Source: Thermocrinis sp.
GTDB lineage: Bacteria; Aquificota; Aquificia; Aquificales; Aquificaceae
Direction of reading: 5' to 3'
DNA length: 42,178 bases
Assembly: GCA_009903855.1 (NCBI GenBank)
Contig: WYEK01000085.1
Span: 1 to 42,178, forward strand
In this document: positions 1,213-41,120 of the stretch, one piece after another
Layout of the letters: every line of letters starts with the position of its first letter
Position numbering within the stretch: the first letter of the stretch is position 1
Program-made: the position numbers and the translations under genes
Notes under the pieces: generated by a model
Databases searched by the model: none
What the model was told of the DNA's origin: nothing
Seen by the model: the letters and a program-made list of their open reading frames with translations, nothing else

Positions 1213-1272
1213 TTTTATAATGAATGGCGTGAGGACTAAGTTAGCTCCTTCAGAGTCCGGAGGAACATCCCA
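1213..1272 (+). promoter_or_regulatory. Likely rlmN-lepB promoter and ribosome binding site
   Basis: A perfect TATAAT at 1216-1221 lies in the 69-nt divergent gap between the ParB-like gene and rlmN. No good -35 is placed at 17 nt. A GGAGG at 1259-1263 precedes the rlmN ATG by 9 nt and supports that start. Confidence 0.4.
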
Positions 1273-2325
1273 ATGAAGGATCTTTCTAAAACAACTTACA
1301 TAACTTCCTTAAACTTGACACAGCTGAGAGAGTTAGTTAAGAGCCTTGGGTGGGAGCCCTACCGGGCAGACCAAATTCTAAACTGGGTTTATAAAAGGTT
1401 CATCACAAACTTTGAAGAGATGACAAACCTATCAAAGGAGCAAAGAAGATTTCTGAGTGATAATTATTCTATTCACAGCTTAGAACTGGTGCAAAAGGTG
1501 GAGGGTGGAGATTCCACAAAGTTCTTGTTTAAAACCATCGATGGGCATCTTTTGGAGACAGTGCTAATATACGAGCGGGACCATCTTACCCTATGTGTAT
1601 CTTCCCAAGTGGGCTGTGCGGTGGGATGCACCTTTTGTGCCACCACCAAGGATGGGCTTGTTAGAAACTTAAGGACCGAAGAGATCATAGACCAATTTTT
1701 GCAGGTGCAGAGGCATACACCGCAAAAGATAAGAAACGTAGTCTTTATGGGTATGGGTGAGCCCTTGGCTAACTACGAAAATGTTAAGAGGGCAGTAGAG
1801 ATTATGGTTAGTCCTTGGGGGCTTGACCTGTCCAAAAGGAGGGTTAGCATATCCACCAGCGGGCTGGTCCACCAGCTCAGGCTCATGGCTCAGGACCCAC
1901 TAATGAGAGAGTTAAACTTAGCAGTTTCCATCAATGCACCCACTCAGGAACTTAGAGAAAAGCTTATGCCCCTTTCAAAGACAAACACTCTTCAGGATCT
2001 GATGGAAACCCTTTATCAGTTTCCTTACCCCTCCGACAGAAGGATCATGATAGAGTACGTGCTTTTGGAAGGAGTCAATGATGAAGAAGTGCACGCAAGA
2101 CAGCTTGCAAACCTTCTCAAAAAGAAAAGAAATAAATTCAAGGTGAACCTCATACCCTTTAACCCAGACCCATCCTTGCCTTATAAGAGACCATCAATGG
2201 AGAGAGTTTATAGATTTCAAAAAATCCTTTGGGAGGAGGGTATATCTACCTTCATAAGGTTGAGCAAGGGGGTGGATATATTTGGCGCCTGCGGTCAGCT
2301 AAGAAGAAGACTTGTGTTAAGATAA
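1273..2325 (+). CDS. rlmN: Dual-specificity RNA C2-adenosine methyltransferase RlmN
   Basis: A radical-SAM enzyme that methylates C2 of A2503 in 23S rRNA and, in many bacteria, A37 of some tRNAs. The 350 residues fit the family. An N-terminal RNA-binding helical part (residues ~1-95) has the typical GWEPYRADQILNWVYKR. The radical-SAM cluster motif CAVGCTFC lies at ~114-121, followed by NVVFMGMGEPLANY. A GACGQL near the C-terminus carries the Cys that forms the methylene-Cys/thioester intermediate. lepB begins 7 nt downstream, so the two are probably co-transcribed. Confidence 0.96.
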   Translation: MKDLSKTTYITSLNLTQLRELVKSLGWEPYRADQILNWVYKRFITNFEEMTNLSKEQRRFLSDNYSIHSLELVQKVEGGDSTKFLFKTIDGHLLETVLIYERDHLTLCVSSQVGCAVGCTFCATTKDGLVRNLRTEEIIDQFLQVQRHTPQKIRNVVFMGMGEPLANYENVKRAVEIMVSPWGLDLSKRRVSISTSGLVHQLRLMAQDPLMRELNLAVSINAPTQELREKLMPLSKTNTLQDLMETLYQFPYPSDRRIMIEYVLLEGVNDEEVHARQLANLLKKKRNKFKVNLIPFNPDPSLPYKRPSMERVYRFQKILWEEGISTFIRLSKGVDIFGACGQLRRRLVLR

Positions 2326-17225: not shown

Positions 17226-19094
17226 TTATAGGGTCTTGCCCTCTATCACATCAGCACCATTACCGCCTTCCTTCTTTTCCGCAGATTGATATATGTATCC
17301 ACCCACCTTTCCAGCAACATCAAGCACCCTCTCTGTAGCCTTCCTTATCTCATCAATGTCCTGGGACTCTGCAAAGACCTTTTTGCCCTCTTGGATAACT
17401 TTTTCCGCCTCTGAGACAATGTCTGAAGGCAGTTTGTCCCTGTTTTCTCTGAGGACTTTCTCTAAGTTGTAAAGGTGCATGTCCAGTTGGTTCTTAGCTT
17501 CAATAAGTTCTTTCTTTTTCCTGTCTTCCTCTTCGTGCATTTGGGCTTCTCTGATGATTCTTTCTATGTCCTCTTGGGTGAGTCCAGAGGAGGGTTGAAT
17601 CCTTATGGACTGTTCCTTACCAGTTCCAAGGTCTCTGGCGGTCACGTGAAGTATACCATCCACGTCTATGTCAAAGCAAACCTCTATCTTTGGTACTCCC
17701 CTTGGTGCGGGTGGTATACCCGTCAGGTAGAACTTACCCAAAGATTTGTTGTCCTTTGCCAAGGGCCTTTCGCCTTGTAGGACGTGGATTTCCACCTGTG
17801 TTTGATAGTCTTCAACGGTAGTGAATATCTCGCACTTTTTGTACGGAATGGGTGTGTTTCTTGGGATCAGAACGGTCATAACTCCACCATAGGTTTCCAC
17901 TCCCAATGAAAGGGGTGTTACGTCCACGAGAAGTATTTCCTTTACCTGACCGGAGAGTATGCCTGCCTGTATGGCAGCACCTACCGCAACCACTTCATCA
18001 GGGTGCACGCCCTTGTGAGGTTCTTTTCCAAAGAATTCTCTTATTCTTTGCTGGACCAGGGGAATGCGAGTAGAACCACCCACAAGTACTACATCATCTA
18101 TGTCTTCGGGTCTGAGCTTGGCATCCTTCAAAGCCTTCTCTACGATCTCCATAGTCCTATCCACCAGGTCCTTGATCATCTCCTCAAGCCTTGCCCTGGT
18201 CAGCTTTTTCTGTAGGTGCAAGGGTTGATTGGTGGATGGGTCTATTGTAATAAAGGGTAGGTTGATCTCCGTTTCAAGCTTAAAGGAGAGCTCCTTTTTG
18301 GCTTGCTCGGAGGCGTCTTTTAGCCTTTGCAGGGCGGTTTTGTCCTTTCTTAGGTCTATGCCAGTTTCTTTCTTAAATTCCTCTATAAGCCATTCCATTA
18401 TCCTCTCGTCTATGTTGGCACCACCCAAATGGGTATCTCCCGCGGTTGCCTTTACCTCTATAACACCATCTCCACCCTCAAGGATGGATACGTCAAAGGT
18501 ACCACCACCAAAGTCATAGACCAGTATTCTTACATCGCTTTTCTTGTCAAGCCCGTAGGCAAGAGCTGCGGCGGTGGGTTCGTTGAGTATTCTGAGAACC
18601 TCAAGCCCTGCAATCTTACCTGCATCCTTGGTAGCCTGTCTTTGCCTTTCGTTAAAGTAAGCGGGCACTGTTATAACCGCCTTGGTGATCTTCTCTCCCA
18701 AGTAGGCTTCTGCAGCTTCCTTTAGCTTTTTGAGAACCAGAGCACCCACCTCCTCTGGGCGGACCTTTCTTCCAAGGTTAGGGATCTCAAAGCTTGCGTC
18801 TCCCTTTTCGTCCGGAACAACTCTGTAGGAAACCCTCTTTGCTTCGTCTATAACCTCTTCATACTTCCTTCCTATGAACCTCTTTGATTCATAAACGGTA
18901 TTCTCGGGGTCCAAAATGGCACGTCTTTTGGCAGGCTCACCCACCAATATTTCCTTCTCCTTTGTCCAAGATACAACGGAGGGGGTAAGCCTTGAACCCT
19001 CCTGATTTTGTATAACCACAGGCTCATCGCCTATCATAACAGCCACAACGGAGTTGGTAGTTCCCAAGTCAATGCCTATGACCTTCTCCGCCAT
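17226..19094 (-). CDS. dnaK: Chaperone DnaK (Hsp70)
   Basis: 622 residues. The ATPase domain carries [49 protein letters not shown] and [15 protein letters not shown]. The substrate-binding domain includes [20 protein letters not shown], and a helical lid follows. It folds and refolds proteins with DnaJ and GrpE, neither of which is adjacent. The ATG has AAGGAGGTG upstream and a sigma-70-type promoter at 19117-19145. No CIRCE or other heat-shock operator was found in the leader. Confidence 0.98.
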
Positions 19095-19145: not shown

Positions 19146-19159
19146 GTTTTTTATGTATG

Positions 19160-19220
19160 CTTTTTTAAAATACAGACCAAGAAGTATATCCCGATTAGGG
19201 AGTTTTTGGACTAGCCTCAG
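19160..19220 (+). repeat. IS200/IS605-like miniature element (copy C)
   Basis: About 60 bp with a left motif TTAAAATACAGACC, a small hairpin TCCC-GATTA-GGGA, a TTTTT run and the right motif TAGCCTCAG. The same parts in the same order occur at 23120-23166 and at the two ends of the tnpB element. Read as a miniature derivative of the tnpB element; this is inference from the alignment. Confidence 0.45.
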
Positions 19221-19232
19221 ATGCGTAGTTTG

Positions 19233-19254
19233 CTAAAATAAATAATGTGGGAGG
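19233..19254 (+). promoter_or_regulatory. -10 box and ribosome binding site of the two-TM gene
   Basis: TAAAAT at 19233-19238 is placed to start transcription at about the upstream ATG (19245). GGGAGG at 19249-19254 lies 8 nt before the ATG at 19263 and favours that as the start. Confidence 0.4.
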
Positions 19255-19262
19255 TATCCGCT

Positions 19263-19694
19263 ATGGACGACAAGGAACTTATAAAGAGGATTATGGAAGA
19301 GGTTAAAGATGAGAGGTTGAGGGAGGAGTTGCTTGCTTTAGTGGTGGAGAAGAATAAAAAGAAAGAGGACACAAAGCAGGAAGAGGAAAAGCCCATAGAC
19401 TATGTGGCAAGGCAGGAAATACTTTTGGGAGCCACCGAAGGAGTGGCTAAGGTGGAGTGGTGGATTGGGTATATCATTTCCATAGTTCTTATTTTGGTGG
19501 GAAGTTTAGGTCCTCTTGGCCTTCTTGGCTATATTCTTGCCCCTGATGAGAAAATGGATAGAGATGCTCAAGCTGGCATTATACTTCTCTCTGCTCTATT
19601 TATAATAGGGCTTGGAATGTTTTTCTCCCTTCGTAGTGGCAAAAGGGAGTATGAGAAGCTAAAACGCAAAGAAGAAAATCAAGGGCAATCTTAA
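19263..19694 (+). CDS. Two-TM membrane protein, unknown
   Basis: 143 residues from the preferred ATG at 19263; the ORF track start at 19245 has no ribosome binding site but could be used on a leaderless mRNA. A charged, helical N-terminal half (DDKELIKRIMEEVKDERLREELLALVVE, then a Lys/Glu-rich stretch) is followed by two membrane segments (WWIGYIISIVLILVGSLGPLG and AGIILLSALFIIGLGMFF). The C-terminus is basic. No family recognised. It is the first gene of the accessory island. Confidence 0.65.
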   Translation: MDDKELIKRIMEEVKDERLREELLALVVEKNKKKEDTKQEEEKPIDYVARQEILLGATEGVAKVEWWIGYIISIVLILVGSLGPLGLLGYILAPDEKMDRDAQAGIILLSALFIIGLGMFFSLRSGKREYEKLKRKEENQGQS

Positions 19695-19705
19695 GGCTCT
19701 CTTTC

Positions 19706-19720
19706 AGACAAAAACCCAAA
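19706..19720 (+). repeat. 15-nt exact copy of the DUF29 gene start
   Basis: AGACAAAAACCCAAA occurs here, in the start of the first DUF29 gene (19771-19785) and in the second (20295-20309). The first copy lies in the intergenic gap with no open frame of its own. Confidence 0.6.
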
Positions 19721-19751
19721 CTTAGTTAGTCGTATTCCTGCGCTCGGCGGG

Positions 19752-19916
19752 CTTATATTTAAACCTATGGAGACAAAAACCCAAAATCTAAAAGAACTTT
19801 ATGAAAAGGACTTTTATCTGTGGGTACAGGAAAATCTCAGACTTCTCAAAAACAAAGAATATGACCTCGTAGATTGGGAGAACCTTCTGGAGGAGATAGA
19901 GGATATGGGACAGAGG
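19752..19916 (+). repeat. Direct repeat, copy 1 (start of DUF29 gene 1)
   Basis: 165 nt that match 20276-20440 with about five mismatches (about 97%). It covers 15 nt of upstream sequence and the first 50 codons. Past 19916 the two genes drop to roughly 70% identity. Confidence 0.9.
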
Positions 19917-20273
19917 CACTATGAAGCTATGGTTAGCTATATGGCGGTAATTATGGAACATATCTATAAGTGGGAAAACTATAGGGAGTCCGCTTATATG
20001 GGTAGCGGGTGGAAGAAAAGCATCATTAACGCAAGAACGAAGATGCTAAAACTCTTCAAGGGTGCGCCTTCCCTTAAAGCGAAGGCTCAGGAAAAAGAAA
20101 CCTTGCAACGGGCATGGGAAGATGCGGTGTTAGACTTAATAGCATGGTTTAAGGTGAATGAAAAGTTAGCCCTTAGGCACTTTGGCAGACTTCCTACAGA
20201 AAAAGACTTCCCAAAAGAGTGTCCTTATAGCTTCCAGCAGATTATGGAATACGAACCGTGGCTTAAGGAGTGA
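19767..20273 (+). CDS. DUF29 family protein, copy 1
   Basis: 168 residues matching the DUF29 family: an N-terminal LYEKDFYLWVQENLRLLKNK and LVDWENLLEEIEDMGQR, a central helix MAVIMEHIYKWEN, and the C-terminal HFGRLPTEKDFPKECPYSF. The fold is helical and the function is unknown; the family is common in cyanobacteria and thermophiles and often comes in multiple copies. No Shine-Dalgarno is seen; TATATT ends 6 nt before the ATG, consistent with a leaderless mRNA. It is followed 17 nt later by its paralogue. Confidence 0.85.
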   Translation: METKTQNLKELYEKDFYLWVQENLRLLKNKEYDLVDWENLLEEIEDMGQRHYEAMVSYMAVIMEHIYKWENYRESAYMGSGWKKSIINARTKMLKLFKGAPSLKAKAQEKETLQRAWEDAVLDLIAWFKVNEKLALRHFGRLPTEKDFPKECPYSFQQIMEYEPWLKE

Positions 20274-20275
20274 GA

Positions 20276-20440
20276 CTTATATTTAAACCTATGGAGACAA
20301 AAACCCAAAATCTAAAAGAACTTTATGAAAAGGACTTTTATCTGTGGGTGCAGGAAAATCTCAGACTTCTCAAAAACAAAGAATATGACCTTGTAGACTG
20401 GGAGAACCTGTTGGAGGAGATAGAGGATATGGGACAGAGG
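20276..20440 (+). repeat. Direct repeat, copy 2 (start of DUF29 gene 2)
   Basis: The second copy of the 165-nt repeat, offset by 524 nt from the first and including the same TATATTTAAACCT upstream sequence. Confidence 0.9.
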
Positions 20441-20791
20441 TATCTGGATAGTGCAGTTAGCTTTATGGCGGTAATCTTGGAACACCTTTACAAGTGGGAA
20501 AACTTCAGATATAGAGAAGATGTAGGGCACAGCTGGATAAGTAGCATAAACAACGCAAGAAACGAACTTGATATAATCTTTGAAACATACCCAAGCATAA
20601 GGAAAAAAGCAGCAGAGGAGTTACCCACCGCTTGGCGTATTGCTGTAAAAAGGCTTGTAAGATGGTTTAAAGAAGATGAAAACCACGACCTTGCTAAAAA
20701 ATACTTTGGCAGATTTCCCACGGAAAAAGATTTCCCACAGGAATGCCCTTATACCTTTGAGCAGGTGATGGAATACGAGCCTTGGGTTTAA
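20291..20791 (+). CDS. DUF29 family protein, copy 2
   Basis: 166 residues from the ATG at 20291; the track start at 20270 (MRLIFKP...) is rejected because it lies in the repeat's upstream part, and the duplicated gene starts at the matching ATG. The first 50 residues are nearly identical to copy 1. The rest (VSFMAVILEHLYKWENFR, KKYFGRFPTEKDFPQECPYTF) is clearly related but diverged. Function unknown. The sharp change in identity within the gene suggests recent gene conversion or partial re-duplication. Confidence 0.85.
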   Translation: METKTQNLKELYEKDFYLWVQENLRLLKNKEYDLVDWENLLEEIEDMGQRYLDSAVSFMAVILEHLYKWENFRYREDVGHSWISSINNARNELDIIFETYPSIRKKAAEELPTAWRIAVKRLVRWFKEDENHDLAKKYFGRFPTEKDFPQECPYTFEQVMEYEPWV

Positions 20792-20833
20792 TTCCTCAAC
20801 TTCCTCAAGCACAAGGAGTTTAAAGATTGAAGA

Positions 20834-20857
20834 GAGTCCTGACGAGGGATTTTTCAA
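20834..20857 (+). repeat. IS200/IS605-like right-end remnant (copy B)
   Basis: AGTCCTGACGAGGGATTTTT followed by CAAAA. About 20 of 23 bases match the right end of the tnpB element (GTCCTGATGAAGGATTTTT at 41082-41101), including a TCCT/GGGA hairpin with a five-base loop. The AGCCTCAG tail and the left end are missing, so it is read as a decayed end. Confidence 0.4.
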
Positions 20858-20879
20858 AAGAACTAAAAAACATACTTGA

Positions 20880-20901
20880 AACAAAAGCCCCCAGTGGGGG
20901 C
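20880..20901 (-). terminator. Intrinsic terminator of the 273-residue gene
   Basis: Perfect GCCCCC-AGT-GGGGGC hairpin at 20887-20901, ten bases past the stop on the minus strand, followed by TTTTGTTT. Confidence 0.8.
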
Positions 20902-20910
20902 AAGCAATAT

Positions 20911-21732
20911 TCACTCCTTTTCTGGTTTAGAGAAAAACCTGAGGAAAGGTTGGAATATTCTGGAAAGCATGCCTTTTGGTGGCTCTTCTTGATTTTCTAC
21001 TTCCTCAGAGGTATTCACATTTCTCAGGAGAAGAACATTGCCATGATCATTTCTTAGTTTGATGTCTCCATAATAAGCCAGAAAGTATGCAGATTCAAAG
21101 GGATAGGATATTCCTTCTTTGAAACACATATTCTTGAAGTCCTGTAAGGTAAGCTCTCCGTCCATTTGAGGAAGTACTCTTTCCCTTGCGGTTTGAACGC
21201 TCTCTTCAAATCTTTCCTTTTCATCCCAAAGTTTCAAGACCGCATTAAAGCTCAAGCCCAATATCCTTGCAAGGCTACCTTCTACTCTATTGGCAAGCCT
21301 CATATCAATCACAGTGTAGCCAATTTCCCGCAACTCTTCAAAGACAGGATGGGGTTTAAGCCATTCATACCTATTTCTTTTGTAGGTTATTCTGAGATAG
21401 ATAGGCTTTAACATCGGATGCTCTGTTAAGGTAGTAAGTAGAATACTGTCATTTGTTCCTATCACAACTTTTTCTGCTTTGTGTTTGCTTGCCAGCTTGT
21501 CTATCAAGTCCATTTCAATCTTTTCCGTCTCTTCTAACTGAACACCACGACGTTCCCACAAATTACGAAGCTTTTCTCCCACCTTTTGCCAATAGTCTGC
21601 CTTAGTATTGACCGCGAAGTATATAGGCGACTCTGGAAATATTTTTCGTAGCTGCATTATAAGATGAGTTTGATCCGCTCCCAGATACCACTGGGAGTCA
21701 ATAATCATAACCTTTTTTATCTTCTTGGACAT
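20911..21732 (-). CDS. Possible NYN/PIN-like domain protein
   Basis: 273 residues with no sure family. The first ~125 residues look like the NYN/PIN-type nuclease fold: a first strand ending in Asp (VMIIDSQWYLGA), a middle acidic helix (KIEMDLIDKLASKHKAEK), and VVIGTNDSILLTTL in the place of the usual SGDxDF strand. That is a weak by-eye match. The C-terminal tail (MLSRIFQPFLRFFSKPEKE) would form an amphipathic helix, as in peripheral membrane proteins. A strong GGGAGGTGG lies before the ATG, 14 nt after the 271-residue gene, so the two form one operon ended by a good terminator. Confidence 0.55.
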   Translation of the reverse strand: MSKKIKKVMIIDSQWYLGADQTHLIMQLRKIFPESPIYFAVNTKADYWQKVGEKLRNLWERRGVQLEETEKIEMDLIDKLASKHKAEKVVIGTNDSILLTTLTEHPMLKPIYLRITYKRNRYEWLKPHPVFEELREIGYTVIDMRLANRVEGSLARILGLSFNAVLKLWDEKERFEESVQTARERVLPQMDGELTLQDFKNMCFKEGISYPFESAYFLAYYGDIKLRNDHGNVLLLRNVNTSEEVENQEEPPKGMLSRIFQPFLRFFSKPEKE

Positions 21733-21746
21733 CTTACCACCTCCCT

Positions 21747-22562
21747 TTAGCTTAGAAACATATAAAGCTCCTTTACCTCCTCTAACGTAAGCTCTATAGG
21801 AGGTCTAAGGGTGGTAATAATCAGGAGATTACCCGAAGTCTTATCTACCTTGAATATTAGCTTTTCTCCGAAATCAACAGGCTTTAGATCCCTATTGCCC
21901 TGGAGGTACTCATACAGCATTTTTAGGACTTTAGCCCTCCTCTGGGGTGTAATGATACCCTTCGTGGGAGCGACATCGTAGCTAAAGAACTCCTCCGTCC
22001 ATCTCCTGAAAATGGCTACCTGCCTTTCCTTTATTATCGTCATTTCCATTTGAGCGTGAAGGGTTAAATATCTCAAAAAGGAGTTAAGCTCCTGCGAGTC
22101 AAAACCTATTCTCCCTCTCTTTATCACACCGGAGTTTGTTTTACCTTCTATTCTTAGATATACCAGAGCTTTCTCTCCGTTAGGCGATGAGCTAATTTCA
22201 CACATTGGGTCCCTATCCGTGTTATTTACAAGGGATATATAGATTTTGTCCCTCTCTCTGTTCATAAACTCTCTCAGGCTTTTTACCAATTCCCACATAT
22301 CTCTTGGATGAACAAACGGACCACCGGTGAAAGGTAGAATCTTTGCCTTAGGTCTTCCATTTTCATTTACATCTTGGAGTTCCTCTTTTGTGTAGTAGGG
22401 CGTTGTTGTTTCCACATAGAGCCGTTGTCTCCATTCCTGTGGAAAACTAATGGGTAGTGTGTAGAGGCTTTGATGAATTTGTGGATACACTTCAAACACT
22501 AATCCTATCTTTCCATGCCTTAGGTTAAGGGGCTCTGCATTAACTTTTTCGGTTATTTCCAT
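21747..22562 (-). CDS. Unrecognised 271-residue protein, operon partner of the NYN-like gene
   Basis: No family recognised and no membrane segment or signal peptide. Residues ~125-170 (ALVYLRIEGKTNSGVIKRGR then IGFDSQELNSFLRYL) and the C-terminus (LIFKVDKTSGNLLIITTLRP then IELTLEEVKELYMFL) look like two related strand-strand-helix modules. The N-terminal part ends in a similar strand-helix (ILPFTGGPFVHPRDMWELVKSLREFM). Such modules recall PC4/Whirly-like nucleic-acid-binding folds, but this is speculation. AAAGGAGG lies 7 nt before the ATG. The upstream gene is separated by a terminator. Confidence 0.6.
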   Translation of the reverse strand: MEITEKVNAEPLNLRHGKIGLVFEVYPQIHQSLYTLPISFPQEWRQRLYVETTTPYYTKEELQDVNENGRPKAKILPFTGGPFVHPRDMWELVKSLREFMNRERDKIYISLVNNTDRDPMCEISSSPNGEKALVYLRIEGKTNSGVIKRGRIGFDSQELNSFLRYLTLHAQMEMTIIKERQVAIFRRWTEEFFSYDVAPTKGIITPQRRAKVLKMLYEYLQGNRDLKPVDFGEKLIFKVDKTSGNLLIITTLRPPIELTLEEVKELYMFLS

Positions 22563-22585
22563 GGTTATACCTCCTTTGTCTTTGG

Positions 22586-22611
22586 TTTAAAAAGGTCCCC
22601 CATGGGGACCT
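22586..22611 (-). terminator. Intrinsic terminator after the small GGCT gene
   Basis: Perfect 8-bp hairpin AGGTCCCC-CAT-GGGGACCT at 22593-22611, followed on the minus strand by TTTTT. It lies 4 nt past the GGCT stop and upstream of the 271-residue gene. Confidence 0.75.
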
Positions 22612-22615
22612 CGCT

Positions 22616-22966
22616 TTATACCTTCCATTCACCGGAAGGTACCAAAGCCGCACCCTCCACCTTTCTATTATACAGATAGACGTGGGCACGCAAAGGAGTG
22701 TGGTCCTCAAGGACCACCTCAATGAGCTCCCTCCTGAAGAGGAAAGGAGCTCCTTCCACCCAGTCAAGCTCCCTAAGGAGCCCTTCTGGGATTTCATAGA
22801 CCTCTCCACGCACTACCCCATCTCCGGGAACCATCCCAGGGTAGGCGCCGAGGTCATAAAGGGCAAAGCCCTTTGCCAAGGCACGCCCTAAAAAAGGACA
22901 GCCCTTTAAGAGGCTGTGCCTTGATCCACCCCTTTTAAGCGTGCCATACACGAAGAGGTAAGCCAT
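22616..22966 (-). CDS. Gamma-glutamylcyclotransferase-fold protein (YtfP/GGCT type)
   Basis: 116 residues from the ATG at 22966; the ORF track's start at 22984 is a TTG upstream of the ribosome binding site GGGGAGGTGG, so it is rejected. The fold signature is YLFVYGTLKRGG at the N-terminus, then GFALYDLGAYPGMVPGDG and the catalytic-Glu region LDWVEGAPFLFRREL. Related enzymes cyclise gamma-glutamyl groups (gamma-glutamylamines or peptides) to 5-oxoproline; the substrate cannot be told. A TATAAT box at 23070-23075 would give a leader of about 97 nt that contains a hairpin. Confidence 0.85.
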   Translation of the reverse strand: MAYLFVYGTLKRGGSRHSLLKGCPFLGRALAKGFALYDLGAYPGMVPGDGVVRGEVYEIPEGLLRELDWVEGAPFLFRRELIEVVLEDHTPLRAHVYLYNRKVEGAALVPSGEWKV

Positions 22967-23075
22967 TAGCCCACCTCCCCGCAATAAGGGGCCAAAAGAC
23001 CCCTCAGAGAAAGCCCTCCCTTGTTAGGAATGCTCACACTTTTGCTTCTTATCCCAACGACCATCATACATTATA
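22967..23075 (-). promoter_or_regulatory. Promoter and long leader of the GGCT gene
   Basis: On the minus strand TATAAT at 23070-23075 (no good -35) is followed by a leader of ~97 nt. It contains the hairpin AGGGGTC-TTTT-GGCCCCT directly upstream of the ribosome binding site. The hairpin has no T-run after it and could affect translation; no riboswitch class was recognised. Confidence 0.4.
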
Positions 23076-23119
23076 TATAACCCACATTCTCAGCAGTTTC
23101 TGACAGCCGACAAGTGGAA

Positions 23120-23166
23120 GCTTTCTAAAATACACCCAGTAGGGAATTTATAAAACAGCCTCACAG
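23120..23166 (+). repeat. IS200/IS605-like miniature element (copy D)
   Basis: About 45 bp: left motif CTTTCTAAAATACA, a small CCC-AGTA-GGG hairpin, a T/A-rich stretch and AGCCTCAC. It has the same order of parts as copy C (19160-19220), without the extra sequence in the middle. It lies between two minus-strand genes and about 8 nt from the stop of the 166-residue gene. Confidence 0.45.
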
Positions 23167-23173
23167 CTTAGTT

Positions 23174-23674
23174 CTACTTCAAAAACTTTTGCCAGTATTT
23201 GTCTATCTCTTCGTCCGGCCAGCCTGTTGTTTCTTTTAGCCCTTTTTTAAGAATATCCAAATAGAGCTGAGAGGGCGTGTTTTTTTCATCATACCAGCAT
23301 CCAGTAAAGGTAAGTATCTTCAATCCGTCCTTTTCCCCCAGTGTGACTATCTTATCATACCACCCTTTTCCTTCTTGTCTTTGCAAATCTTCAAGCTGGC
23401 TCTCCTTTATTTTCCAAAGCCTGACTACTGCATGATACTCTGAATCAGTTTCCTTCTCACAGGATAAGAAGGCTACTCCCTGATTATTCCACCTTCCAGA
23501 ACTCTTTGCGAAGTAAACCCTATATGGAACCCACATCCATCCAAGAGATTCAGGTTCCGTTTTGTCTCTACAGCCTTCGTAATGTACCCCCATAAAAGTA
23601 CCGCCCCTAATGTAAACCAAGAATCTTTCCTTAAGTAGATTAGAGCCGTATGCGGCGTAGATAACATAGGACAT
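23174..23674 (-). CDS. Gamma-glutamylcyclotransferase-like protein, second type
   Basis: 166 residues with the N-terminal fold signature VIYAAYGSNLLKERFLVYIRGG, a YGSN-type glycine loop rather than YGTLK, and a catalytic-type Glu in QEGKGWYDKIVTLG. A distinct subfamily from the small GGCT gene 200 nt away. The substrate is unknown. A strong AAGGGAGGGA precedes the ATG, and TAAAAT at 23695-23700 is the likely -10. It is divergent from the cytochrome gene. Confidence 0.75.
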   Translation of the reverse strand: MSYVIYAAYGSNLLKERFLVYIRGGTFMGVHYEGCRDKTEPESLGWMWVPYRVYFAKSSGRWNNQGVAFLSCEKETDSEYHAVVRLWKIKESQLEDLQRQEGKGWYDKIVTLGEKDGLKILTFTGCWYDEKNTPSQLYLDILKKGLKETTGWPDEEIDKYWQKFLK

Positions 23675-23739: not shown

Positions 23740-24705
23740 ATGAGAAAAAGCCTTTTGCTTTTGCCCTTTAGTGTGGCCTTGGCTCAGCCTGTTATAGAGC
23801 CCAACTTTGCGGATAGACTGTTTCCCTACATTACCTACGGGGAAGTTTGGAGTGGCACGCCCGCCATGTTGAAGGATGTAGCCATTCCTAATGTGCTAAT
23901 TGTTTACGGTTCAAAGGAGGACCCAGAGGTTGTAGCCCAAGCGGGCAAGATTGCCTTTTACTTGGGGCAGTGGGTAGAAGACATTGGCTTTGGTGCAGAA
24001 GAGGTAAAACAGTCCAAAATACCACCACTACTGGTAAGCGACACCCAACTAAAGAACCTTCAGTGGAAAAACATCATAGTGGTTGGCACCAACAACGATG
24101 TGGTAAAGGAGCTGGGACTGACCTTTGAAAAGCCCACCATAAAGATGGTGGAAAAAGATGGAAAAAGGATTCTGGTGGTGGGAGGAGCCAACAAGGAACA
24201 AACTATACAGTCTGCCAAATACCTTGCGGATGTTAGGCTAAACTTCAAGGCGGGTGCCTACAGAACCTTCTTCTCCTTTGTGGCATTGAGGGGACACATA
24301 GAAAAGGGTGAGTTTGACACCGCCCTAAGGCTTGTCAGGAGCCCTCTGGGGATTTCCGCCTGTGGTAAAAACATGGCTTTGGCTGCACCTATGGTAGCCC
24401 AATGGTCAGATGATATAAAGGCAGTGGTTAAAAAGAGGAACACCATTCTATACCAAGAACTGCCAAAGGCTTTGGAAGAGAGAGACAAAGAGAAGGCGGT
24501 TGCCCTTTGGAAGGACGCAATGCTAACCTGCTACCAATGCCATCAAGGTATAGGCATACCTCAGGTAAGAAAGTTCAAACCAGTGGAAGAGATCCACGCA
24601 AAACATCAAAGGATCGCAGAAAGCTTTGGTTTGCTTCAGTTGGCTGGAGACCAAAAATCTTGTACAGCCTGCCACGCAGGACAGACGCAAATTAGAGGGT
24701 ATTAG
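23740..24705 (+). CDS. Exported di-heme cytochrome c
   Basis: 321 residues with an N-terminal signal peptide (RKSLLLLPFSVALAQ, cleavage likely after AQ or just before). Two c-type heme motifs lie near the end, CYQCH (~264) and CTACH (~308), so the hemes are attached in the periplasm. The middle holds an unrecognised alpha/beta domain (NVLIVYGSKEDPEVVAQAGKIAFYLG, IIVVGTNNDVVKELG, ILVVGGANKEQTIQSAKYL). A role in periplasmic electron transfer is probable; no partner enzyme is adjacent. Its TAG stop overlaps the GTG start of the DUF1461 gene by 1 nt. Confidence 0.85.
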   Translation: MRKSLLLLPFSVALAQPVIEPNFADRLFPYITYGEVWSGTPAMLKDVAIPNVLIVYGSKEDPEVVAQAGKIAFYLGQWVEDIGFGAEEVKQSKIPPLLVSDTQLKNLQWKNIIVVGTNNDVVKELGLTFEKPTIKMVEKDGKRILVVGGANKEQTIQSAKYLADVRLNFKAGAYRTFFSFVALRGHIEKGEFDTALRLVRSPLGISACGKNMALAAPMVAQWSDDIKAVVKKRNTILYQELPKALEERDKEKAVALWKDAMLTCYQCHQGIGIPQVRKFKPVEEIHAKHQRIAESFGLLQLAGDQKSCTACHAGQTQIRGY

Positions 24706-39465: not shown

Positions 39466-39477
39466 AGGCAAAGACTG

Positions 39478-39496
39478 TTCTAAAAATACAAACCCA
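39478..39496 (+). repeat. Proposed left end of the tnpB element
   Basis: TTCTAAAAATACAAACCCA resembles the left motifs of the short copies C (TTTAAAATACAGACCA) and D (TTCTAAAATACACCCA). It lies just outside the tnpB promoter. Confidence 0.4.
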
Positions 39497-39525
39497 TTGA
39501 CACAGAAAGGTATTTCCTCTAAAAT
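39497..39525 (+). promoter_or_regulatory. tnpB promoter
   Basis: A perfect -35 TTGACA (39497-39502), 17-nt spacer and TAAAAT (39520-39525). Transcription would start at about 39532, so the ATG at 39535 would have a leader of only ~3 nt and no Shine-Dalgarno. Confidence 0.7.
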
Positions 39526-39534
39526 CTAAGCTTG

Positions 39535-41103
39535 ATGTTTGTTAGCCTACAGTTTAAGCTTGAACTAAGAAAGGAAGACAAAGAAAAACTCATAAAGCTT
39601 ATGCGTAAGCAATCCTCCGCCATTCGTGTAGCATACAATATGCTAAAGGAGTTGGAAAAAGAAAAAACAAAAAACCCACATGCCCAAATATACCAAAGAC
39701 TAAGACAGTTATTCCCTGACCTGCCAACAAAATACATTGACTCAGCTATTTACAAAGCTAAACAATATCCCACAAACAAAACAGTTGTGTTTGGAGGCAA
39801 AAGACTTTTTGAAAAGCTTTGCAAAAATCATCTTTCAGGAAAGGCGAGAGAAAAACTTAAAAAGCAGTGGAGAGAACTAAGACAAGGAACTCTTATAAGC
39901 ATCGGGTCAAAGGCAGACAAAGGAAACAGACTAATGAGATTTGAAGACCTAAACGGACAGCTACACCTTAGGATTACCACAGGAAACAGAGAATTTATCT
40001 ACGCCAAAGTGTTAAGAGAACCAAGCAACAGCAAAGACAAGTGGCTCACCTTTATGACTATGCTTTTAGAAAGCTGGAAAACTCAAAGCTATTTCCCTTA
40101 TACAGTGGAATTAAAGCTAAGGAATGGAGAGGTTTATGGAAGCGTATCCTTTGAAATCCCAACGCCTGAAGTTAGATACACAAAAGAAAACGGAGTAATA
40201 GCCATAGATACAAACGCATCACCCATCCACTTAGCCATGGCGGAAGTCTCAAAAACTGGAGAACTACTAAGCTATCAGACTATTAGCCTACACCACCTTT
40301 TAGGACTTTCTCAAAACAGCAAAGACTACCAAGAGTGGATATTAGCACATCAGATAGTGAATTTGGCTGTTGAGAAAGGTAAAGCGATAGCCATAGAGAA
40401 CCTAAAGAAACTCAAAAAAGGAATGCGTGGGGATGGGAAAGCTAAGCTAAGAAAAAGACTTCACAACTGGAATGCCAAAAAGTTTTTGCAAAAGCTAAAG
40501 AGGGTTGCAATGTTAAAGGGAGTGGAATTAGTAGAAGTCAATCCTGCTTACACATCAATTATAGGCATGCTAAAGTATGCACCACAGTTGAACATAGACA
40601 AGGACATAGCGGGTGCTTATGCGATAGGAAGGAGTGCTTTAGGATTTAAAGAGGACATGCCTGAGAATTACGAGAAGCTTCTGAAGGACAAAGCATATCT
40701 AGAGTTTGCACTGAAAAGGTATGAAGAGAGAGAAAAAGAACTTAGAGAACTTATAGAGAAGGAAACTAACGAGTATAAGAGAAATGCCTTAGAAAGCAAA
40801 CTAAGGAGTGTAGAGGATGCGAGGAAACTTTTAGCTAATCTCATACAAAGCCTTCAGAGTGAGCCAAGCGGATGTGAGGGAGCCGATGGAAGGAATCCCG
40901 AGCGGGGAAGGGTAGCAAAAACTACCCTTCAAAGTGCTTGGCAAGTTCTGAAGGTAGCCCTCCTCTTCCCTATCCTTGGAAGGGTCTTACCAAGAGACCT
41001 TTCTCCTCTGAAGCCCGTGTTGGTGGAAGGGGTGTGGAATAGGGTGAGGAGTAGGTTAGTTCCCTTAGAGGCTGGGGGGACGGTCCTGATGAAGGATTTT
41101 TAA
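39535..41103 (+). CDS. tnpB: TnpB-related protein of an IS200/IS605-like element
   Basis: 522 residues from the ATG (a TTG at 39532 is also in frame). TnpB proteins are RNA-guided DNA nucleases and the forerunners of Cas12. RuvC-like parts: first Asp in VIAIDTNASPIHLAMAEV, Glu in KAIAIENLKKLKKG, and last Asp in NIDKDIAGAYAIGRSALGF. Between, NPAYTSIIGMLKYA replaces the CxxC zinc-ribbon, so this is the zinc-free TnpB-related branch. A charged coiled stretch (~400-435) leads to a tail with RDLSPLKPVLVEGVWNRVRS, which probably overlaps a structured RNA. No tnpA is present, so it depends on another transposase or no longer moves. Confidence 0.88.
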   Translation: MFVSLQFKLELRKEDKEKLIKLMRKQSSAIRVAYNMLKELEKEKTKNPHAQIYQRLRQLFPDLPTKYIDSAIYKAKQYPTNKTVVFGGKRLFEKLCKNHLSGKAREKLKKQWRELRQGTLISIGSKADKGNRLMRFEDLNGQLHLRITTGNREFIYAKVLREPSNSKDKWLTFMTMLLESWKTQSYFPYTVELKLRNGEVYGSVSFEIPTPEVRYTKENGVIAIDTNASPIHLAMAEVSKTGELLSYQTISLHHLLGLSQNSKDYQEWILAHQIVNLAVEKGKAIAIENLKKLKKGMRGDGKAKLRKRLHNWNAKKFLQKLKRVAMLKGVELVEVNPAYTSIIGMLKYAPQLNIDKDIAGAYAIGRSALGFKEDMPENYEKLLKDKAYLEFALKRYEEREKELRELIEKETNEYKRNALESKLRSVEDARKLLANLIQSLQSEPSGCEGADGRNPERGRVAKTTLQSAWQVLKVALLFPILGRVLPRDLSPLKPVLVEGVWNRVRSRLVPLEAGGTVLMKDF

Positions 41104-41120
41104 AATAGCCTCAGTTAGCT
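41060..41120 (+). repeat. Proposed right end of the tnpB element / 3' end of its guide RNA
   Basis: GGTCCTGATGAAGGATTTTT followed by AAAATAGCCTCAG, spanning the tnpB stop. It forms a TCCT-GATGA-AGGA hairpin. In TnpB elements the guide RNA (reRNA/omegaRNA) covers the 3' end of the gene and runs past the right end into the flank, so the guide here would begin just after the TCAG. The exact boundary cannot be fixed. Confidence 0.5.

What the first reader, a model, noticed from the sequence alone, without database searches (positions are those of the whole stretch)
19160..23166. Accessory island bracketed by two direct miniature elements
Copies C and D lie in the same direction about 4 kb apart. 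Between them are genes with no housekeeping role: the two-TM protein, the DUF29 pair, the NYN-like operon and a small GGCT. A third, decayed end (B) lies inside. Flanks are core genes (dnaK on the left; a cytochrome on the right, beyond one more GGCT-like gene). This is what a block assembled by repeated insertion or carried by paired ends would look like.
Basis: partly seen in the sequence, partly recalled or inferred. Interest (0 to 1): 0.6.

Follow-up and report, generated by a model that had tools for sequence, protein, structure and literature searches.

The report
Old transposon scars around accessory genes
The two repeats either side of these accessory genes are worn-out relics of a small jumping element that has been fixed in the same places in related hot-spring bacteria; they mark places where the chromosome was cut and rejoined, but there is no sign that they carried the genes between them as a package.

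Summary
The repeats are real. C (about 19156-19218) and D (about 23117-23162) are decayed miniature elements in the same direction. Their family is now identified: 17-bp terminal inverted repeats GAGGCTGTTCTAAAAAT, 9-13 bp target duplications, about 1.64-kb full copies carrying a TnpB-related gene (one intact at 39471-41112), about 0.3-kb minis, and an IS5-like DDE insertion sequence with identical ends (relative G037). 'End B' is not supported (p = 0.84); a different decayed end lies behind the DUF29 pair (20835-20865).

The island reading is only partly supported. The genes are accessory: dnaK and the cytochrome are unlinked in two congeners that lack the block. But D is at the same site in all three congeners carrying the block, C in both whose dnaK side is assembled, so both are old fixed insertions. 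No target duplication joins C's outer to D's outer end; accessory GGCT2 lies outside D; no empty site was found. C and D coincide with synteny joints: C's right flank differs between congeners, and homology to a Hydrogenobacter GGCT1 copy stops at D's left edge.

The island itself is ordinary. The more interesting by-product is a bacterial TnpB-related gene in a DDE/TIR-type element, which the papers I could search describe only for eukaryotic Fanzors.

The parts
19156..19218 (+). Copy C: decayed miniature element (left end ~19156-19178, right-end hairpin and tail 19188-19218), upstream of the dnaK promoter; the motif TTTGTCA lies just left of it
   Evidence: RE matrix 17.1 bits vs shuffled max 10.1; LE p=0.002; orthologous 145-bp LE+RE copy at the same site in G017 (LE HMM E=3e-9); same 65-bp form in G037
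23117..23162 (+). Copy D: decayed ~46-bp miniature element (left end fused to right end) between GGCT1 and GGCT2
   Evidence: RE matrix 29.7 bits; LE match 0/500 shuffles; same site in G017, G031, G037
20835..20865 (+).
   Evidence: 12.0-14.7 bits, 0/500 shuffles; conserved in G017, G031, G037
19726..19750 (+).
   Evidence: RE alignment p=0.84; no hit
39471..41112 (+). Full-length TnpB-type element of the same family, TIRs with 2 mismatches each
39532..41103 (+). TnpB-related ORF, 523 aa, RuvC D/E/D residues present
   Evidence: homologue in C134 passes TIGR01766 cut-off
1223..1294 (+). Right-end fragment ('A') of the same family
   Evidence: RE HMM E=5e-8, 0/500 shuffles
17226..19094 (-). dnaK (left flank, core)
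   Evidence: PF00012 E=6e-246
19245..19694 (+). Two-TM protein; absent at this site in G017, cut to 27 codons in G037
19767..20273 (+). DUF29 copy a
   Evidence: PF01724 E=3e-35
20270..20791 (+). DUF29 copy b; tandem duplicate, first 165 nt 97% identical to copy a; single copy in G017
   Evidence: PF01724 E=8e-34; repeat D1
20911..21732 (-). NYN-like protein (IIDSQW...IGTND...GYTVI), no Pfam match
   Evidence: in 4 of 61 family genomes
21747..22562 (-). Uncharacterised protein p21747 of the same operon
22616..22969 (-). GGCT1, gamma-glutamyl cyclotransferase-like
   Evidence: PF06094 E=2e-30; 548-bp segment 89% identical in Hydrogenobacter sp.
23174..23674 (-). GGCT2-like gene, accessory but outside D
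23740..24705 (+). Multihaem cytochrome-like protein (right flank, core)
   Evidence: 51 of 61 family genomes

Best explanation
C and D are decayed, immobile miniature derivatives of one transposon family of Thermocrinis-like Aquificaceae. Shown: the family has 17-bp terminal inverted repeats, 9-13 bp target duplications, full copies with a TnpB-related gene, ~0.3-kb deletion minis and a 0.93-kb IS5-like DDE insertion sequence with the same ends; C and D occupy the same sites in congeners. Inferred: the DDE transposase moves all of them in trans, into sites with TGTCA next to the duplicated stretch (the complement of a -35 box, hence just upstream of the dnaK promoter). The accessory genes came together between dnaK and the cytochrome stepwise, by separate acquisitions, rearrangements, gene loss and a DUF29 tandem duplication, with element copies serving as insertion sites and breakpoints. 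C and D did not carry the block as a composite transposon.
For: Family and ends: 26 paired copies, 14 with a duplication of 8 bp or more; motif TGNCA on the left flank in 12/26, on the right flank in 0/26, background 2.4%. Helper: 934-bp IS in G037 with the same TIR and 10-bp duplication GCGAAACAGT, DDE_Tnp_1 E=2e-12. Same sites in relatives: D in G017, G031, G037; C as a 145-bp LE+RE element in G017 and the same 65-bp form in G037. C's flank TTTTGTCA-AGTTTTTTATGT carries the family's target motif at the right distance. Joints: dnaK-side flank identical, the other side differs between G000/G037 and G017; homology to the Hydrogenobacter GGCT1 segment ends at 23113, 4 bp from D. Block absent and dnaK/cytochrome unlinked in G024, G009.
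Against: No target duplication is visible around C or D individually, so insertion is inferred from motif and orthologous copies. Two joints at element edges could be coincidence in a fast-rearranging genus. The order of events cannot be fixed because no congener keeps dnaK and cytochrome adjacent without the block. The helper IS copy lacks an obvious start codon, and only fragments of it were found in the window's own incomplete genome.
Confidence: 0.8

Rival explanations
1. Composite transposon: the block moved once as a unit using C's left end and D's right end, long ago, and the duplications have decayed.
For: Both copies retain left and right ends in the same direction. In this genome a 1,808-bp unit with outer ends from two different elements (C15, L024 795-2602) is flanked by a 9-bp duplication AAATGTTCA, so larger flanked units can move. 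The block is absent in some congeners.
Against: No duplication across the outer ends; no second copy of the block; accessory GGCT2 lies outside D; G017 lacks the two-TM gene and has different DNA right of C, so content was built in steps; GGCT1 (89% nt) and NYN (74% nt) have different affinities to Hydrogenobacter.
Confidence: 0.1
2. C and D are unrelated to the island's history: independent intergenic insertions near promoters, and their position at synteny joints is chance.
For: Element ends of this family are common in the genus and prefer TGTCA sites such as -35 boxes. Gene order is fluid in the genus.
Against: Both copies sit at joints seen in pairwise comparisons, and the further decayed end at 20835 abuts DUF29b, inside which G037 is broken.
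Confidence: 0.3
3. The repeats are not transposon ends but conserved regulatory or terminator motifs (hairpin plus T-run).
For: TCCC-loop-GGGA hairpin followed by TTTTT looks like a terminator; conserved between congeners.
Against: The same sequence forms the exact terminus of elements with TIRs and target duplications, and G017 has a longer copy at C's site with the family's left end.
Confidence: 0.03

Closest known systems
MITEs derived from bacterial DDE insertion sequences
   Same: Short, no coding capacity, share TIRs and target-duplication length with a DDE insertion sequence; several copies per genome
   Different: Most derive from a TnpB-carrying relative and keep its folded right-end tail; C and D are further decayed to about 65 and 46 bp
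IS5 family insertion sequences (IS903/ISH1-like ends)
   Same: DDE_Tnp_1 domain; best NCBIfam hit transpos_IS5_2 (7e-19); TIR of the G003 relative (TGAGCCTGTTGAAAAAATC) resembles IS903-type ends (from memory)
   Different: Scores below every NCBIfam cut-off; target duplications 9-13 bp (7 in G003); strong TGTCA target context on one side
IS200/IS605, IS607 and IS1341 elements with tnpB
   Same: Carry a TnpB-related gene (TIGR01766 passed) whose 3' tail runs into a structured right end
   Different: Terminal inverted repeats and target duplications, which Y1 and serine transposases do not make (PMC3627910); no Y1_Tnp in the own, 71% complete genome
Eukaryotic Fanzor1 in IS4-type and other TIR transposons (PMC3627910, PMC10711439)
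   Same: A TnpB homologue captured by a DDE/TIR transposon
   Different: Here in bacteria, with a prokaryotic TnpB-related protein
Composite transposons
   Same: Genes between two copies of one element family in the same direction
   Different: No outer target duplication, no second location, copies too decayed to move

Membership tests
Composite transposon (C-to-D block) | Two copies of one element flank the block | tested here: met
Composite transposon (C-to-D block) | Target duplication outside the outer ends | tested here: not met
   AAGTTTTTTATG vs ACAGCTTAGTTC, window sequence
Composite transposon (C-to-D block) | Same block elsewhere or an empty site in a close relative | tested here: not met
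   block only at this place; block-less relatives have dnaK and cytochrome unlinked
MITE of this TIR family (C and D) | Left and right ends of a known element without its genes | tested here: met
   G017 ortholog of C has LE and RE
MITE of this TIR family (C and D) | Own target duplication | tested here: not met
   none at C or D; present at 14 of 26 other copies
IS5 family (helper IS) | DDE_Tnp_1 transposase with TIRs and target duplication | tested here: met
IS5 family (helper IS) | NCBIfam equivalog cut-off | tested here: inconclusive
   IS5_2 68 bits vs cut-off 140
TnpB (1.64-kb elements) | TnpB family profile | tested here: met
   TIGR01766 60.4 bits vs cut-off 32; guided_TnpB 49.8 vs 100 not reached
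TnpB (1.64-kb elements) | RuvC D/E/D residues under purifying selection | tested here: met
   AID[TI]N / A[IV]ENL / DKD in the correctly extracted copies; dN/dS about 0.1 (two of 19 rows mis-extracted)
TnpB (1.64-kb elements) | RNA-guided cleavage | not testable with these tools
   only a conserved folded 3' tail seen, 7 pairs with double changes
IS200/IS605 | Y1 transposase, subterminal hairpins, no target duplication | tested here: not met
   no PF01797 in own genome; TIRs and duplications present

The most novel reading that the evidence does not exclude
In Aquificaceae a TnpB-related RNA-guided nuclease gene has been captured between the ends of IS5-like DDE transposons, giving abundant TIR elements whose TGTCA target motif lies exactly where a TnpB transposon-adjacent motif would be in the empty site (immediately 5' of the duplicated target that follows the element's right end); a bacterial counterpart of Fanzor capture by DDE transposons. 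C and D are relics of this family.
Probability: 0.6. Interest if true: 0.65.

Novelty: new variant of a known kind. Interest (0 to 1): 0.4.

Why it matters
For the island itself little: it shows that an apparently bracketed gene block was probably not carried by its repeats, and that such repeats can be old fixed scars at rearrangement joints. The element family matters more: if TnpB in bacteria can ride on a DDE transposon with terminal inverted repeats and target duplications, the link between TnpB and Y1 or serine transposases is not obligatory, and how a guided nuclease helps a cut-and-paste element persist becomes testable in a bacterium.

Tried and rejected
Rfam on the window gave only the tRNA. 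Direct BLAST of C against D is weak (E = 0.03), so family profiles were needed. IS200/605 membership was my first idea because the right end encodes a TnpB tail; rejected when TIRs and target duplications appeared and no Y1 was found. DUF29 as cargo of the elements: ends lie close to DUF29 genes at several loci, but about three quarters of the 30 loci examined have none, so not adopted. TnpB as the cause of the TGTCA motif: the G003 insertion sequence without tnpB shows it too, so the motif is credited to the transposase. G042 as a third right-flank variant of C: dropped as evidence because the junction contains a 100-N assembly gap and a cut amrS gene. PADLOC hits for the island genes are marginal and partial. 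Record CP007028 is not held.

Full report
WHAT WAS CLAIMED. Two direct miniature elements (C at ~19160, D at ~23166) bracket an accessory island between dnaK and a cytochrome, with a third decayed end B inside; the block might have been assembled by repeated insertion or carried by paired ends.

THE REPEATS ARE REAL BUT DECAYED. Compared directly, C and D are only weakly alike (71% over 45 bp, E = 0.03). Searching the window's own genome with D showed its right half at six other places, which led to the parent family. A position matrix of the right end, trained on other copies only, finds in the window the full element at 41082-41112 (33.9 bits), D (29.7), C (17.1) and a new decayed end at 20835-20865 (12.0), all on the + strand; 20 shuffled windows reach at most 10.1. 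The left halves of C and D match the family's left end (p = 0.002 and 0/500), so each is a fused left end plus right end of about 65 and 46 bp. 'End B' fails (p = 0.84).

THE FAMILY. Full copies are about 1,642 bp with a 517-526-aa TnpB-related ORF; one lies intact in the window (39471-41112; ORF 39532-41103). The C134 protein passes TIGR01766; RuvC D/E/D residues are conserved and dN/dS is about 0.1 (two of 19 rows were badly extracted, so the figure is approximate). The ends are inverted repeats GAGGCTGTTCTAAAAAT/ATTTTTAGAACAGCCTC. Of 26 paired copies in the genus, 14 have target duplications of 8-13 bp (e.g. GTAACATCGGGT in C6), and 12 have TGNCA just outside the duplicated stretch on the left side, none on the right, against 2.4% by chance. 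Minis of 140-334 bp keep both ends, several with the last ~80 tnpB codons. That 3' tail folds with some covariation (34 pairs, 7 with double changes; one of 24 rows, L239, was in the wrong orientation), as an omega-RNA would; this is suggestive only.

THE LIKELY MOVER. In congener G037 a 934-bp insertion sequence with the same 17-bp ends and a 10-bp duplication (GCGAAACAGT) encodes a 278-aa DDE protein (DDE_Tnp_1 2e-12, IS5_2 7e-19 but under cut-off). Hybrid minis with one DDE-type and one tnpB-type end exist, and in C15 a 1,808-bp unit with such unlike outer ends has a 9-bp duplication. In G003 three identical copies of a related insertion sequence without tnpB have 7-bp duplications directly followed by TTGAC, so the TGTCA/TTGAC context is a property of the transposase. 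A more distant TnpB family in G026 (about 42% identity) also has inverted repeats, a 10-bp duplication and TGTCA. No Y1 transposase was found in the own genome. That the DDE protein moves the tnpB elements is inferred from shared ends, not shown.

RELATIVES AT THE LOCUS. From record titles, G031 is Thermocrinis sp. RSWP3 and G006 Hydrogenobacter sp. RSWP5; G009 and G017 have the genome sizes of T. albus and T. ruber (memory). G017, G031 and G037 carry DUF29, p21747, GGCT1, GGCT2 and cytochrome in the same order, with NYN also in G017 and G031, and D is at the same site in all three. At C's site G017 has a longer, 145-bp element with recognisable left and right ends, G037 the same 65-bp form as the window. 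G017 lacks the two-TM gene and has one DUF29; G037 has lost NYN, keeps 27 codons of the two-TM gene and is rearranged between that gene and DUF29, with the fresh insertion sequence next to the break. In G024 and G009 the block is absent and dnaK and cytochrome lie far apart. So C and D were in place in the common ancestor of the block carriers and have only decayed since.

HOW THE BLOCK AROSE. To the left of C all congeners with C agree up to TTTTGTCAAGTTTTTTATG, the complement of dnaK's -35 region and the family's target motif at the right distance; to the right they differ (AGATGCGTAGTTTG in G000/G037, GTCGTAAAGCAAG in G017). No target duplication remains. That is what a rearrangement or deletion starting at the element would leave. 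On the other side, a 548-bp GGCT1 segment (89% nt) shared with Hydrogenobacter G006 stops at 23113, 4 bp from D, and G006 has no D; NYN in the same cluster is only 74% alike. The block thus looks stepwise and mosaic. There is no duplication across C's left and D's right end, and accessory GGCT2 lies outside D. I conclude that the repeats mark joints but did not carry the island (confidence about 0.8 for the relic reading, 0.1 for an ancient composite).

KNOWN OR NEW. The papers I could search describe prokaryotic TnpB in IS605, IS607 and IS1341 elements (PMC9956272) and capture by DDE/TIR transposons for eukaryotic Fanzors, IS4-type included (PMC3627910, PMC10711439). I found no description of a bacterial tnpB in a DDE/TIR element with target duplications; subscription papers and ISfinder were not searchable, so this is provisional. 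The island itself is a new instance of an ordinary thing.

Noticed in passing
window 39471-41112; L021, L022, L028, L157, L163, L173-L180, L239: TnpB-related genes in elements with terminal inverted repeats and 9-13 bp target duplications, ends shared with an IS5-like DDE insertion sequence (L086 1863-2796).
   Followed up: partly
26 element flanks; L243-L245: Target motif TGNCA (complement of a -35 box) sits outside the duplicated stretch on the left side only of tnpB elements and on the right side of a tnpB-less relative; it is where a TnpB adjacent motif would be.
   Followed up: partly
L160 (C141), L159 (C58), L172 (G017), L023 (C46), L161 (G037), window 20835-20865: Element ends lie within about 60 bp behind DUF29 genes at several loci; in C141 the inverted repeat overlaps the DUF29 stop codon. 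Up to ten DUF29 copies per genome, and breaks in G037 and G031 (amrS-secF) fall at DUF29.
   Followed up: partly
window 22569-23113 and L092: GGCT1 segment 89% identical (nt) between Thermocrinis and Hydrogenobacter MAGs while the neighbouring NYN gene is 74%: a mosaic exchange between genera.
   Followed up: partly
window 19752-19916 and 20276-20440: Tandem DUF29 genes with 97% identical first 165 nt but diverged middles, suggesting recent duplication or gene conversion.
   Followed up: no
window 20911-22562; L091 3331-4107: NYN-like protein and its operon partner without Pfam family; a second NYN paralogue (46%) in contig C137.
   Followed up: partly
G042 C4 (L087): Upstream of dnaK a 100-N assembly gap falls inside the C element and joins to a cut amrS gene and secF; possible misjoin at the repeat.
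   Followed up: yes
window 1223-1294: Right-end fragment of the same transposon family ahead of what looks like an rlmN-type gene.
   Followed up: no
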